The notes below the pieces were generated by a model that had not been told where the DNA came from, did no database searches, and saw only the letters and a program-made list of their open reading frames with translations. The translations under genes and the position numbers were made by a program. Positions 58,052 to 63,890 of a DNA stretch of 64,000 nt are shown here, one piece after another (within the stretch, counting starts at the first letter, position 1; each line of letters begins with the position of its first letter). This DNA is from Endobacterium cereale (GTDB lineage: Bacteria; Pseudomonadota; Alphaproteobacteria; Rhizobiales; Rhizobiaceae), in the NCBI RefSeq assembly GCF_009617585.1, contig NZ_WIXI01000050.1, positions 434,001 to 498,000 on the forward strand. The letters run 5' to 3'.

Positions 58052-59569
58052 ATGAATACCTTCGATTTCCTTTTGCAGGGTCTTGCGATCGCCGCACAGC
58101 CGATCAACCTGTTCTACGCCCTGATCGGCGTCACGCTCGGCACATTGGTCGGCGTCCTGCCCGGCATCGGCCCGGCGCTGACGGTTGCGCTGCTCCTGCC
58201 CGTCACCTACCAGCTTGATCCGGCCGGTTCGCTGATCATGTTTGCCGGCATCTATTACGGCGGCATGTATGGCGGCTCGACCACGTCGATCCTCTTGAAC
58301 ACCCCCGGCGAAAGTGCGTCTATCGTCACCGCGCTCGAGGGCAACAAGATGGCCCGCGCCGGCCGTGGCGGCCCCGCTCTTGCAACAGCCGCCATCGGAT
58401 CGTTCGTTGCCGGCCTGATCGCAACGATAGCACTCGCCTTCATCGCTCCCTTCGTCGTCAAATTCGCGCTCGCCTTCGGCCCCCGCGAATATTTCGCGCT
58501 GATGGTTCTCGCCTTCGTCACCGTATCGGCAGCCTTCGGCGATTCGACGCTGCGTGGTCTGACATCGCTGTTTATCGGTCTGGCGCTCGCCATCATCGGC
58601 ATCGACCAGTTGACCGGCCAGACGCGCATGAGCTTTGGCATTCCTGATCTGCTCGATGGCATCGAAGTGACGACGCTGGCCGTTGCCATGTTCGCCATCG
58701 GCGAAACGCTCTATGTTGCCGCTCAGGGCAGCCGCGCGCCTGAAAAGGTCGAGGCAGTCAAGGGTTCGCTGTGGATGACCAAAAAGGATTGGGCTCGCTC
58801 GTGGAAGCCCTGGCTGCGCGGCACGGCGATCGGCTTTCCGATCGGCGCCATGCCGGCCGGTGGCGCGGACGTGTCGAGCTTCCTGTCTTACTCGGCGGAA
58901 AAGCAGTTCTCCAAACACCCGGAAGAGTTTGGCAAGGGCGCCATCGAAGGCGTTGCGGGGCCGGAAGCCGCCAATAACGCTTCGGCCGCCGGTACGCTCG
59001 TACCGTTGCTGACGCTCGGCCTGCCGACCACGGCAACGGCTGCGATCATGCTCGCCGGCTTCCAGCAGTTCGGCCTGCAGCCGGGGCCGCTCCTGTTCGC
59101 CACCAATCCGCAGCTCGTCTGGGGCCTGATCGCCTCGCTGCTGATCGCCAATTTCATGCTGCTGGTTCTGAACCTGCCGCTGATCGGCCTGTGGGTGCGC
59201 CTGCTGACCATCCCGAAGCCCTGGCTCTATGCCGGCATCCTGATGTTCGCGACGCTTGGCACCATCGGCGCCAACCCGTCGGTGTTCGAACTCGGCATGC
59301 TGCTCGCCTTCGGTCTGCTCGGATATGTCATGCGTGTCATGGGGTATCCTATCGCACCCGTCGTCGTCGGCCTCATCCTCGGCCCAATGGCAGAACAGCA
59401 GTTGCGCCGTGCGCTGTCGATCAGCCAGGGCGACCCCACCGTGCTCGTCAGCTCGCCGATTGCCGCGACGCTGCTCGTGCTGGCGGTTCTGGCGCTGGTC
59501 GTGCCGCTGATCATGCGTGCTCGCGGCCGTGGTGAAGTGCTGTCGCAGGTCGCCGGCGCGGAAGACTGA
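58052..59569 (+). CDS. tctA: TctA, large membrane subunit of the tripartite tricarboxylate transporter
   Basis: 505 residues with about twelve transmembrane helices. TctA signatures are [21 protein letters not shown] (about residue 30), [21 protein letters not shown] (about 68), [24 protein letters not shown] (about 257), and [26 protein letters not shown] (about 298). It forms the proton- or sodium-coupled carboxylate channel with TctB. Followed by a strong terminator. Confidence 0.95.
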
Positions 59570-60642: not shown

Positions 60643-61680
60643 ATGACCCCGCATTCCTCGGTGCTCAGCGTAATCGGCAACACTCCCCTGATTCGCCTGA
60701 AAGGCGCCTCGGATGCGACCGGCTGTGAAATCCTCGGCAAGGCGGAATTTCTCAATCCGGGACAGTCGGTCAAGGACCGCGCCGCGCTCTACATCATTCG
60801 CGATGCGGAAAAGCGTGGCCTGCTGCGTCCGGGCGGCGTCATCGTCGAGGGCACAGCCGGCAATACCGGCATCGGTCTGACGCTGGTTGCCAAGGCGCTC
60901 GGTTATCGCACGGTCATCGTCATTCCCGAAACCCAGAGCCAGGAAAAGAAGGACGCCCTGAAACTGATGGGTGCCGAACTCGTGGAAGTGCCGGCGGTTC
61001 CCTACAAGAACCCCAACAATTACGTCAAAGTTTCCGGCCGCCTCGCAGAACAGCTGGCCAAGACCGAGCCGAACGGCGCCATCTGGGCCAACCAGTTCGA
61101 CAATGTCGCCAATCGCCAGTCGCATGTGGAAACCACCGCGCAGGAAATCTGGCAGCAGACCGACGGCAAGATCGACGGTTTCATCTGCTCGGTCGGCTCC
61201 GGCGGCACGCTCGCCGGCACTGCCGAGGGTCTTCGCGCCCACAATGCGTCCATCAAGATCGGTCTGGCCGACCCGGATGGCGCCGCTCTTTATGAGTATT
61301 ATGCCAATGGCGAGTTGAAGTCCGAGGGCAGCTCGATCACCGAAGGCATCGGTCAGGGCCGTATCACCGCCAATCTCGAAGGTTTCGCCCCCGATTTCAG
61401 CTATAAGATCAGCGATGTGGAAGCGCTGCCCTACGTCTTCGACATGGTCGAGAACGAGGGCCTGTGCCTGGGTGGCTCCACCGCCATCAATATCGCTGGT
61501 GCGGTTCATCTCGCGCGTGATCTCGGGCCCGGGCACACGATCGTCACGATCCTGTGCGATTACGGCAACCGCTATCAGTCAAAAATGTTCAACCCGGAAT
61601 TTCTCAAATCCAAGGGACTGCCGGTGCCGCAGTGGATTGCCAAGTCCAGCAAGATCGCCGCTCCCTTCGAAGCTGTTTGA
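60643..61680 (+). CDS. cysK: Cysteine synthase A (O-acetylserine sulfhydrylase)
   Basis: 345 residues, PLP-dependent. The start block is MTPHSSVLSVIGNTPLIRLK, the Schiff-base Lys is in NPGQSVKDRAALYI (about residue 44), the substrate loop is EGTAGNTGIGL (about 72), and the phosphate-binding Gly/Ser loop is SVGSGGTLAGTAEGL (about 185). It makes cysteine from O-acetylserine and sulfide. It heads a likely operon with the AlaX-like gene (7-base gap) and the sulfurtransferase gene. At 345 residues it is longer than E. coli CysK, as in other alphaproteobacterial members. Confidence 0.94.
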   Translation: MTPHSSVLSVIGNTPLIRLKGASDATGCEILGKAEFLNPGQSVKDRAALYIIRDAEKRGLLRPGGVIVEGTAGNTGIGLTLVAKALGYRTVIVIPETQSQEKKDALKLMGAELVEVPAVPYKNPNNYVKVSGRLAEQLAKTEPNGAIWANQFDNVANRQSHVETTAQEIWQQTDGKIDGFICSVGSGGTLAGTAEGLRAHNASIKIGLADPDGAALYEYYANGELKSEGSSITEGIGQGRITANLEGFAPDFSYKISDVEALPYVFDMVENEGLCLGGSTAINIAGAVHLARDLGPGHTIVTILCDYGNRYQSKMFNPEFLKSKGLPVPQWIAKSSKIAAPFEAV

Positions 61681-61687
61681 GATCCAG

Positions 61688-62434
61688 ATGACCACGACAC
61701 TCCTGTTCCGCGACGATTTCTATCTCTCCACTGCCGAAGGCACGGTCACCGTGCTGCACGAGGATGGTGCGATCGAACTCGACCAGACCTGCTTTTATGC
61801 GACTTCCGGCGGCCAGCCGGGTGATATCGGCTTTTTCGAACGTGCCGATGGGTCTCGCATCGAGATCGCCACCACCCGCAACGGCGCCACCAAGGACATC
61901 ATTCTGCATGTTCCGGCTGAGGGCCAGCAGCCACCGCTGGTGGGCGAAAAGCTGACGATCCACATCGACTGGCCGCGCCGCTACAAGCTGATGCGCATGC
62001 ACACCGCCTGCCATATTCTGTCGGTCGTCTGCCCTTACCCGGTCACCGGCGCCGCCGTCGGCGAGGATGAATCGCGCATCGATTTCGACATGAGCGACAT
62101 TCCCGACCCACTCGACAAGGCGACGGCCACCGAGCGGATGATGGCGCTCGTCAACGAAAATCATCCGGTTTACCTGCAATGGATCACCGACGAGGAACTG
62201 GCCGCCAATCCGGATCTGGTCAAATCCAAGAACGTGCGCCCGCCGGTCGGCCTCGGCCGTGTCAGCCTCGTCTGCATCGGTGAAAATTCCAGTATCGACA
62301 GCCAGCCTTGCGGCGGCACACATGTGTCGGAAACGCAGGAAGTCGGTGCCGTCTACATTTCCAAGATCGAAAAGAAGGGCAAGGAGAACCGCCGGTTCCG
62401 TATCCGCTTCGGCACACCCGAAGAAACGGCCTGA
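61688..62434 (+). CDS. AlaX-type alanyl-tRNA editing protein
   Basis: 248 residues. The N-terminal beta domain is related to the AlaRS editing region (DQTCFYATSGGQPGDIG). The zinc site is HTACHILS (HxxxH, about residue 105) and CGGTHV (CxxxH, about 204). It hydrolyses Ser- or Gly-charged tRNA-Ala in trans. It starts 7 bases after cysK at ATG 61688. Freestanding editing next to cysteine synthesis is common in rhizobia and may guard against mischarging. Confidence 0.92.
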   Translation: MTTTLLFRDDFYLSTAEGTVTVLHEDGAIELDQTCFYATSGGQPGDIGFFERADGSRIEIATTRNGATKDIILHVPAEGQQPPLVGEKLTIHIDWPRRYKLMRMHTACHILSVVCPYPVTGAAVGEDESRIDFDMSDIPDPLDKATATERMMALVNENHPVYLQWITDEELAANPDLVKSKNVRPPVGLGRVSLVCIGENSSIDSQPCGGTHVSETQEVGAVYISKIEKKGKENRRFRIRFGTPEETA

Positions 62435-62471
62435 ACGCTACTCTGATATTGCCATACAAAGGGAGACTGCC

Positions 62472-63890
62472 ATGAGCGGAGCAAAAAGCCGTTTCGTCGT
62501 ATCCGCTGACTGGGTTGAAAAACAGCTCGGCACAAGGGGGTTTCGCGTTATCGACGCCGCCTGGTATCTGCCTGCGCATAATCGCAATGGTGCCGCCGAA
62601 TATGCCGGCGGCCACATCCCCGGCGCGGTGTTTTTCGACCAGGACGTGATTGCCGACCACACGACCGGCCTGCCGCACAGCCTGCCCTCGCCCGAATATT
62701 TTGCAGAGGAAATCGGCAAGCTCGGCATTTCCGAACACGACACGATCGTTGTTTACGACGGTCCCGGTTTCTTTTCCGCGCCGCGCGTGTGGTGGATGCT
62801 GCGAACCATGGGTGCCGAAAACGTCTATGTGCTCGATGGCGGCCTCGACGGCTGGAAGGCGGAAAACCGCCCGCTCGAAACCGATTTGGGCGAACCGGTA
62901 CCGACAACGTTTACCCCGCATTTCCGCCAGCGCCGTGTCACGAGCTTTTCGGAAATGCGCGCCGTCGTCGATAGCCGCGTTCGGCAGGTGGTCGATGCCC
63001 GCGGTGCCGGCCGTTTTACGGGAGACGAAGCCGAACCGCGTGCCGGAATGCGTTCCGGCCATATGCCCGGCGCCCGCAGCCTGCCCGCCACAAGCCTGTC
63101 GGCCAATGGCCACTTCCACGATCTCGCGACGCTGAAGCGCATGATGGATGAGGCCGGAATCGATCTCTCGCAACCGGTCGTCACCAGCTGCGGCTCGGGC
63201 GTCACCGCCGCCGTCATCACGCTGGCGCTGGAATCGCTCGGCCATACCGACAATTCGCTCTATGATGGATCGTGGTCGGAATGGGGTTCGCGCAGCGACA
63301 CCAATATCGTCACCGGTCCGGCCGAGCCGATCGAGCGCAAGGAATCACAGCCGCTCAAGGCACACATCACCCGCCTGGAAATGACGGCGGCGCCAAAGAA
63401 CAGCCTGCCGATCCCGGCAAACATACAGACGGCGCTGATGAGCGTGCAGGACATGCCGCTCAGCTATTATCGTTATCTCTACCGGCAGGTGGGAAAACGC
63501 TGGCACTGGTATGAACGGCTGCGCATGAGCGATGCGGAACTGTCGGAAATCCTCAACAGTTCCAAAGTCAGCGTCACCGTGCTTTACGTCAACGGCGCAC
63601 CGGCCGGCTTTTTCGAATTGAACAAGCTGAATGACGATCTTGTCGAACTTTCGTATTTCGGCCTGTTCGAACGCGCTATCGGCATGGGCATCGGCAAATG
63701 GTTCCTGCTGCAGGCGCTTTACGCCGCATGGCAGGACAATCCGAAAAAGGTCACCGTCAACACCAACACGCTCGACCATCCGCGCGCATTGCAGCTTTAC
63801 CAGATGATGGGCTTCTCGCCGGTCGGCACCAGCGAAGCCTGGGTGCCGCCGATGTCGGATGCCGAACTGCTGATGGCGCTTGATCGCTAA
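62472..63890 (+). CDS. sseA: Mercaptopyruvate sulfurtransferase fused to a GNAT acetyltransferase
   Basis: 472 residues in one uninterrupted frame. Residues about 8-285 are a two-domain rhodanese. The inactive first half has EYAGGHIPGAVFFD. The second half carries the catalytic Cys240 in SCGSGVTAAV, the 3-mercaptopyruvate sulfurtransferase loop, and ends GSWSEWGSRSDTNIVTGPA. After a short linker (EPIERKESQPLK) comes a GNAT domain (about 297-472): VTVLYVNGAPAGFFELNKL, then the acetyl-CoA loop region AIGMGIGKWFLLQAL, and TNTLDHPRALQLYQMMGF. The two are usually separate genes. An internal ATG at 63381 could also start the GNAT part alone. No frameshift or stop separates them. Confidence 0.9.
   Translation: MSGAKSRFVVSADWVEKQLGTRGFRVIDAAWYLPAHNRNGAAEYAGGHIPGAVFFDQDVIADHTTGLPHSLPSPEYFAEEIGKLGISEHDTIVVYDGPGFFSAPRVWWMLRTMGAENVYVLDGGLDGWKAENRPLETDLGEPVPTTFTPHFRQRRVTSFSEMRAVVDSRVRQVVDARGAGRFTGDEAEPRAGMRSGHMPGARSLPATSLSANGHFHDLATLKRMMDEAGIDLSQPVVTSCGSGVTAAVITLALESLGHTDNSLYDGSWSEWGSRSDTNIVTGPAEPIERKESQPLKAHITRLEMTAAPKNSLPIPANIQTALMSVQDMPLSYYRYLYRQVGKRWHWYERLRMSDAELSEILNSSKVSVTVLYVNGAPAGFFELNKLNDDLVELSYFGLFERAIGMGIGKWFLLQALYAAWQDNPKKVTVNTNTLDHPRALQLYQMMGFSPVGTSEAWVPPMSDAELLMALDR

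What the first reader, a model, noticed from the sequence alone, without database searches (positions are those of the whole stretch)
62472..63890. Single-frame fusion of mercaptopyruvate sulfurtransferase and a GNAT acetyltransferase
The sequence shows a complete rhodanese pair with catalytic CGSGVTA loop running without a stop into a complete GNAT domain through a linker of about 12 residues. From knowledge of rhizobial genomes I expect these as two neighbouring genes; a fusion would tie persulfide production to acyl transfer, perhaps on a common substrate next to cysK. It may instead reflect loss of a stop codon.
Basis: partly seen in the sequence, partly recalled or inferred. Interest (0 to 1): 0.7.

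Follow-up and report, generated by a model that had tools for sequence, protein, structure and literature searches.

The report
Fused sulfurtransferase-acetyltransferase enzyme in rhizobia
Two neighbouring enzyme genes that most rhizobia keep apart, a sulfur-transferring enzyme and an acetyl-transferring enzyme, are joined here into one long protein; the join is real and shared with related genera, but what the joined protein does has not been tested.

Summary
Window 62472-63890 (+) is one open frame of 472 codons: a complete 3-mercaptopyruvate sulfurtransferase (MST), a linker of about 13 residues and a complete GNAT domain. It is not a sequencing error: the same stop-free frame occurs in 16 of 57 genomes of the genus and 18 of 394 drawn from the family, including all sampled members of three other genera. 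Other relatives carry the two genes separately, at the end of a cysK-alaX-MST-GNAT cluster, so the fusion joins operon neighbours. The halves have different histories: one branch (100/100) separates the 24 fused from the 20 split MST rows tested, but the same split is rejected for GNAT (p-AU 0.023). The window's clade has a fused-type MST although rpoB and valS place it apart from the other fused Neorhizobium, so recombination has probably moved the fusion between lineages. Most active-site positions are kept in 42 of 42 fused loci. I conclude that it is a real bifunctional protein, probably in cysteine/3-mercaptopyruvate metabolism. The GNAT substrate is unknown and coupling of the two activities is untested.

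The parts
62472..63890 (+). MST-GNAT fusion gene, 472 codons plus stop
62472..63311 (+). MST part, residues 1-280 (two rhodanese domains)
   Evidence: NCBIfam PRK11493 285.9 bits, cut-off 250; Pfam Rhodanese, two stretches; PDB 1urh 7.7e-70
63189..63209 (+). catalytic loop CGSGVTA, residues 240-246
   Evidence: C240, S242 and R181 identical in 42 of 42 fused loci; R190 42 of 42
63312..63350 (+). inter-domain linker, residues 281-293
   Evidence: column counts; dN/dS 0.417 over residues 279-293 against 0.188 (MST) and 0.193 (GNAT)
63351..63887 (+). GNAT part, residues 294-472; begins with strand 295-304, whose sequence the separate GNAT proteins also have
63672..63695 (+). acetyl-CoA motif region RAIGMGIG, residues 401-408
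   Evidence: G404, G406, G408 in 42 of 42; position 401 varies (H 30, E 9, R 3)
62460..62465 (+). Shine-Dalgarno-like AGGGAG upstream of the MST start
   Evidence: sequence
60643..61680 (+). cysK-type gene (PRK10717), first gene of the conserved cluster
   Evidence: 573.4 bits, cut-off 387; upstream on the same strand in 57 of 57 genus loci
61688..62434 (+). AlaX-like tRNA-editing gene, second gene of the cluster
   Evidence: AlaXM model 183 bits, under its cut-off of 300; Pfam tRNA_SAD 42.9 bits, cut-off 24; upstream on the same strand in 57 of 57 genus loci

Best explanation
The gene encodes one bifunctional protein formed by in-frame joining of two adjacent operon genes, an MST and a GNAT acetyltransferase, which other members of the same gene cluster (cysK - alaX - MST - GNAT) encode separately. 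The N-terminal half should carry sulfur from 3-mercaptopyruvate on Cys240 as a persulfide and pass it to an acceptor. The C-terminal half should transfer acetyl from acetyl-CoA to an amine, most likely of a small sulfur or beta-substituted amino acid made or consumed by the same cluster. The likeliest effect of fusion is to fix the two activities at equal amounts and in one place, not to form a channel. The fused MST type probably arose once and has since been moved between lineages by recombination, which may also have undone the fusion. Shown: the frame, the intact domains, the conservation, the cluster and the discordant histories. Inferred: both activities, the substrate class, the benefit of being fused, and the direction of each exchange.
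For: Single frame and complete domains. Fused in 16 of 57 genus genomes and in 18 of 394 family genomes, 4 of 109 genera (counted in its capped list, best scores first). MST key residues 42 of 42; GNAT glycines 42 of 42. dN/dS 0.188 (MST) and 0.193 (GNAT), linker 0.417. cysK and alaX upstream in 57 of 57 genus loci, fused or not. A GNAT relative on the same strand within about 650 bp downstream of MST in 20 of the 29 class-level loci L177-L205, which are the best scoring of that search, so the association is wider than the fusion. No in-frame ATG/GTG/TTG in the window gene between residues 270 and 306 except M304, which has no Shine-Dalgarno. MST: one branch, 100/100, parts the 24 fused from the 20 split rows; window clade + split Neorhizobium rejected (p-AU 5.9e-85), all Neorhizobium together rejected (0.0005). 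GNAT: that same parting rejected (0.023). rpoB rejects window clade + other fused Neorhizobium (0.016) and split Neorhizobium + Rhizobium (1.4e-5). All. valS rejects window clade + other fused Neorhizobium (0.0009). The window clade shares an upstream ChrR-like gene with 21 of 27 split genus loci and with 0 of 10 other fused genus loci checked, as expected if a fused MST entered a split-type locus.
Against: No activity, substrate or protein product has been measured. The GNAT is close to no characterised acetyltransferase: best Foldseek hit VipF 6wqb at TMq 0.68 and 14% identity; the window domain reaches no NCBIfam cut-off. The weak NCBIfam matches among the 42 family members point elsewhere than sulfur amino acids: RimI in 17, PaiA spermidine/spermine acetyltransferase in 11 (best 6.3e-9), mycothiol synthase in 12. 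Position 401 of the acetyl-CoA motif is not conserved. gyrB does not reject window clade + other fused Neorhizobium (p-AU 0.115). The split Neorhizobium as one clade without the window clade is not rejected by rpoB (0.06) or gyrB (0.08), so nesting is not proven. valS also rejects window clade + all split Neorhizobium (7.9e-28), because three of 11 carry another valS. In the 109-row trees starred branches do not rule out a single origin of the fused state for either half. The AU tests were made after the trees had been seen. The two halves of GNAT alone do not settle the window clade's place; alaX groups it with neither genus group. Split forms are the majority in the genus, so fusion is not required.
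Confidence: 0.6

Rival explanations
1. Substrate channelling or a common substrate: the GNAT acetylates a thiol amino acid or its persulfide held by the MST half, so persulfide production and acetylation act on one molecule.
For: All sampled genomes of three genera are fused. The gene association reaches beyond the family. cysK lies in the same cluster.
Against: The linker is variable. pTM 0.72 with high pLDDT suggests no confident fixed domain arrangement (my reading). Of 57 genus genomes 41 do without fusion. The GNAT substrate is unknown.
Confidence: 0.14
2. The fusion is selectively neutral: a stop was lost, both domains work as before, and fused and split alleles replace each other by ordinary recombination.
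For: Fused and split forms coexist in one genus, in the window's clade with a flanking gene shared with split loci, and the two halves have different histories.
Against: All sampled genomes of three genera are fused (7 of 7, 5 of 5, 3 of 3), and the frame has stayed open over divergence down to 69% protein identity to the window protein among the 29 fused relatives aligned.
Confidence: 0.13
3. Two products from one frame: internal initiation or proteolysis in the linker still yields free GNAT.
For: The linker is the least conserved of the three parts. A few fused loci have an in-frame start with a Shine-Dalgarno-like stretch, for example L005 residue 295.
Against: In the window gene the only candidate start is M304, without a Shine-Dalgarno; starting there would remove most of the strand 295-304 whose sequence the separate GNATs keep. 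Proteolysis was not testable.
Confidence: 0.1
4. Sequencing or assembly error, or a very recent stop loss in this isolate.
For: None found.
Against: 42 distinct loci share the stop-free frame, with a nearly constant distance between the domains in the 24 fused loci printed.
Confidence: 0.01

Closest known systems
3-mercaptopyruvate sulfurtransferase SseA (E. coli, PDB 1urh) and human MPST (3olh, 4jgt)
   Same: Residues 8-278 align with 1urh almost end to end, with the CGSGVTA loop and both arginines.
   Different: Those are separate enzymes of about 280-300 residues; here a GNAT follows on the same chain.
Separate sseA and GNAT genes of Sinorhizobium, Rhizobium and most sampled Neorhizobium
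   Same: Same order, same cluster, same domains. A Sinorhizobium meliloti record annotates them as sseA and 'GNAT family N-acetyltransferase'.
   Different: A stop ends MST, and GNAT begins afresh within tens of bases.
Leishmania major MST (PDB 1okg), a three-domain MST
   Same: An MST with an extra domain; a weaker match here (1.9e-21); the paper's title was seen only in a reference list.
   Different: Whether its extra domain is related to GNAT was not tested; recalled as a different fold.
Persulfide dioxygenase-rhodanese fusion protein
   Same: A natural bacterial fusion of a rhodanese to another enzyme; the paper's title was seen only in a reference list.
   Different: The partner is a dioxygenase; here it is an acetyltransferase of unknown substrate. 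Not compared by sequence.
GNAT proteins VipF (6wqb), SpeG, PaiA, AAC(3)
   Same: Same overall fold.
   Different: 12-20% identity over the 50 listed matches, so no guide to the substrate.

Membership tests
3-mercaptopyruvate sulfurtransferase (NCBIfam PRK11493) | score over the curated equivalog cut-off | tested here: met
   285.9 against 250
3-mercaptopyruvate sulfurtransferase (NCBIfam PRK11493) | CGSGVTA-type loop (MST type, not the rhodanese type; the distinction is recalled) | tested here: met
   residues 240-246; C240 and S242 in 42 of 42 fused loci
3-mercaptopyruvate sulfurtransferase (NCBIfam PRK11493) | two substrate-binding arginines (recalled as Arg178/Arg187 in E. coli, Arg188/Arg197 in human) | tested here: met
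   R181 and R190 align with arginines of 1urh and 3olh and are in 42 of 42
3-mercaptopyruvate sulfurtransferase (NCBIfam PRK11493) | sulfur transfer from 3-mercaptopyruvate | not testable with these tools
   needs an enzyme assay
GNAT acetyltransferase (Pfam PF00583) | score over the gathering cut-off | tested here: met
   23.9 against 20.7; 42 of 42 members of the domain alignment match at E up to 0.01
GNAT acetyltransferase (Pfam PF00583) | GNAT fold | tested here: met
   model pLDDT 88.7; 153 PDB matches at E up to 0.001, the 50 listed nearly all named acetyltransferases
GNAT acetyltransferase (Pfam PF00583) | acetyl-CoA motif Q/R-x-x-G-x-G/A (recalled) | tested here: inconclusive
   both glycines 42 of 42; first position H 30, E 9, R 3
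Any GNAT family named in NCBIfam | curated cut-off | tested here: not met
   best for the window domain 14.7 bits against 219
AlaXM (neighbouring gene, NF040865) | score over the equivalog cut-off | tested here: not met
   183 against 300; called AlaX-like only

The most novel reading that the evidence does not exclude
The fused protein is a true two-step enzyme: the GNAT acetylates a cysteine-derived compound, or its persulfide, produced or used at the MST site. This would make acetylated sulfane-sulfur carriers a controlled product in Agrobacterium and its relatives, with fused and split alleles traded by recombination to tune that flux.
Probability: 0.1. Interest if true: 0.7.

Novelty: new variant of a known kind. 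Interest (0 to 1): 0.4.

Why it matters
MST is a source of protein and small-molecule persulfides, and its acceptors in bacteria are poorly known (general knowledge). A natural fusion, and a gene association seen beyond the family, both point to one particular partner, an uncharacterised GNAT. Because fused and split forms of the same gene pair occur within one genus, in the same gene cluster, the effect of fusion can be tested directly.

Tried and rejected
Artefact: rejected by 42 distinct fused loci. Programmed stop readthrough in split relatives: 15 of 41 split genus loci are in frame, against 19 and 7 in the other two frames, about the one third expected by chance, so there is no sign of a kept frame. 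Simple vertical inheritance of the MST half: rejected if rpoB and valS stand for the species. Whole-operon transfer into the window clade: only partly supported. cysK (support 86, not starred) and MST lean to the fused relatives, alaX does not, and the 3' part of GNAT and the DNA after it are slightly closer to split relatives. A breakpoint inside GNAT could not be placed. Secondary fission as the only reading of L051: not firm. Its MST lies inside the fused group in the protein tree but just outside the 24 fused rows in the DNA tree (support 84). Substrate by structure: the listed Foldseek matches are general GNATs. Literature: nine searches listed no paper on an MST-GNAT fusion by title or abstract start; four of the lists were capped below the number of papers found. 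Passages of three papers were seen by term search only and hold no 'acetyltransferase'. The library holds only open-licence PMC papers, so this does not show that the fusion is unpublished. The first rpoB tree was wrong because some antisense frames were picked; one search replaced it.

Full report
Observation. The window frame 62472-63890 (+) reads 472 residues without an inner stop. Residues 7-280 match the NCBIfam 3-mercaptopyruvate sulfurtransferase equivalog over its cut-off, and E. coli MST 1urh aligns over residues 8-278 at 7.7e-70. The C-terminal part matches Pfam Acetyltransf_1 over its cut-off. The predicted structure (mean pLDDT 92.8) has a strand at residues 295-304 before the rest of the GNAT. 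Separate GNAT proteins of relatives have the same segment in sequence (A-H-V-T-x-L-E-M and the like), so it belongs to the GNAT and the linker is residues 281-293.

It is not an artefact. In the window's genus 57 genomes were searched: 16 have the stop-free fusion, 15 have both genes in one frame with one stop between them, and 26 have the genes in different frames. In a draw of 394 genomes of the family, 378 had any match and 18 had the fusion, in 4 of 109 genera: 3 of 8 drawn from the window's genus g1, 7 of 7 from g18, 5 of 5 from g107, 3 of 3 from g97 (counted in its list of matches, which is capped but ordered best first). In 241 genomes drawn from the class, the window's own included, only the window's was fused, and 8 others had both genes in one frame with one or two stops (likewise capped). 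One g1 genome also has a match starting at the same coordinate as in a Neorhizobium sp. NCHU2750 plasmid record. These names are inference.

Constraint. In the 42 distinct fused loci kept (13 refetched copies and three that repeat other loci were dropped), MST Cys240, Ser242, Arg181 and Arg190 are identical in 42 of 42. GNAT G404, G406 and G408 are identical in 42 of 42, but position 401 of the motif varies. Pooled over 211 of the 861 pairs (those with a synonymous difference of 0.05-0.55 in MST), dN/dS is 0.188 for MST, 0.193 for GNAT and 0.417 for residues 279-293. Both domains are under similar purifying selection while the linker drifts. The window gene has no likely internal start for a free GNAT.

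Setting. cysK (60643-61680) ends 7 bases before the AlaX-like gene (61688-62434), which ends 37 bases before MST. Both are upstream of MST on the same strand in 57 of 57 genus loci. In the 29 further class-level loci fetched (L177-L205, the best-scoring rows), a GNAT relative lies downstream on the same strand within about 650 bp in 20 of 29. The association is thus wider than the fusion. A ChrR-like gene stands upstream of the cluster in the window and its three close relatives, and in 21 of 27 split genus loci checked, but in 0 of 10 other fused genus loci checked (the stretches held upstream are about 0.5 to 2.7 kb long). A downstream gene with the start 'AMPT...DAYG' is seen in the window's clade, in one other fused genus locus (L167) and in several split loci (only 16 loci were printed).

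History. Trees of 109 loci put the MST of all 42 fused genes in one group that also holds one split gene, L051 (support 94). The GNAT of fused genes falls in more than one group, although starred branches do not rule out one origin. A careful DNA analysis used 44 rows: 24 fused (4 of the window's clade, 10 other Neorhizobium, 4 Agrobacterium, 6 Allorhizobium-like) and 20 split (14 of 27 Neorhizobium loci with long flanks, 6 of 10 Rhizobium loci). For MST one branch (100/100) parts the 24 fused from the 20 split rows, so that split Neorhizobium join Rhizobium. Holding the window clade with split Neorhizobium is rejected (p-AU 5.9e-85), and so is holding all Neorhizobium together (0.0005). For GNAT that same parting of fused from split is rejected (0.023), the window clade with split Neorhizobium is rejected (0.0125), and all Neorhizobium together is rejected (0.040). 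For rpoB (55 of 57 genomes had a match), split Neorhizobium with Rhizobium is rejected (1.4e-5), the window clade with the other fused Neorhizobium is rejected (0.016), and the window clade falls with split Neorhizobium (92/92, not starred); split Neorhizobium alone as a clade is not rejected (0.06). valS (29 of 30 genomes; one fragment dropped) rejects the window clade with the other fused Neorhizobium (0.0009), and also with all 11 split ones (7.9e-28), since three of these carry another valS. gyrB (29 of 30; one fragment dropped) rejects neither the first (0.115) nor a clade of split Neorhizobium alone (0.084).

Reading. The simplest account is one origin of the fused MST type, with later recombination. 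Split Neorhizobium carry a Rhizobium-type MST beside a GNAT related to those of fused genes. The window's clade carries a fused-type MST in genomes, and beside an upstream gene, that resemble split species. L051 has Rhizobium-like cysK, alaX and GNAT around an MST of the fused type or its nearest sister. The genome of L051 stands with Agrobacterium in the rpoB DNA tree (98*). So it is either a fusion undone or a lineage that was never fused.

Limits of that reading. Sliding identities differ by only a few percent outside the MST. The GNAT halves analysed apart do not settle where the window clade belongs. alaX follows neither group. The species markers are three single genes, and the groups were named after trees had been seen.

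Function. From general knowledge of MST, the N-terminal half should make a persulfide on Cys240 from 3-mercaptopyruvate. The GNAT fold is clear (153 PDB matches at E up to 0.001, best VipF at TMq 0.68 and 14% identity), but no substrate family is indicated for the window domain. Among the 42 family members weak matches to RimI (17), mycothiol synthase (12) and PaiA (11, best 6.3e-9) are seen, which would fit protein, thiol-cofactor or polyamine acceptors as well. The cluster with cysK suggests sulfur or beta-substituted amino acids as the acceptor class; this is inference. High pLDDT with pTM 0.72 suggests that the two domains are not held in one confident arrangement, which argues mildly against a built-in channel. 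I therefore prefer 'two activities fixed in ratio and place' over 'shared substrate', without proof.

Known or new. MST and GNAT are both well-known families. I found no paper on their fusion in nine searches of the held library, most of it seen as listings only. The protein is presumably present in sequence databases, since sampled Agrobacterium genomes carry it. I rate it as a new variant of a known kind.

Noticed in passing
L051 (Rhizobiales bacterium AFS000508): Split gene pair with an MST of the fused type (or its sister) between Rhizobium-like alaX and GNAT; a fusion undone by recombination, or a lineage never fused.
   Followed up: partly
L291-L319 (valS loci): The genus holds two clearly different valS lineages; three of 11 sampled split genomes (G001, G016, G026) carry a valS that groups with Agrobacterium, Rhizobium and Allorhizobium-like genomes.
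   Followed up: no
L002 1411-2025 (-): A second, separate GNAT of 204 residues in the same genome, 37% identical to the fused GNAT over residues 299-451, next to a gene for a membrane protein that looks like an M50 peptidase (the last by eye).
   Followed up: no
window 58052-59569 (+): A TctA-like transporter gene near the cluster; among the loci held it was found only in the three close relatives of the window. Most loci reach too little upstream to judge.
   Followed up: partly
G029 contig C3:221480-222334: Several genus genomes carry a further MST, 39-46% identical, without a GNAT half in the match; one such place has the start coordinate of an sseA on a Neorhizobium plasmid record.
   Followed up: no
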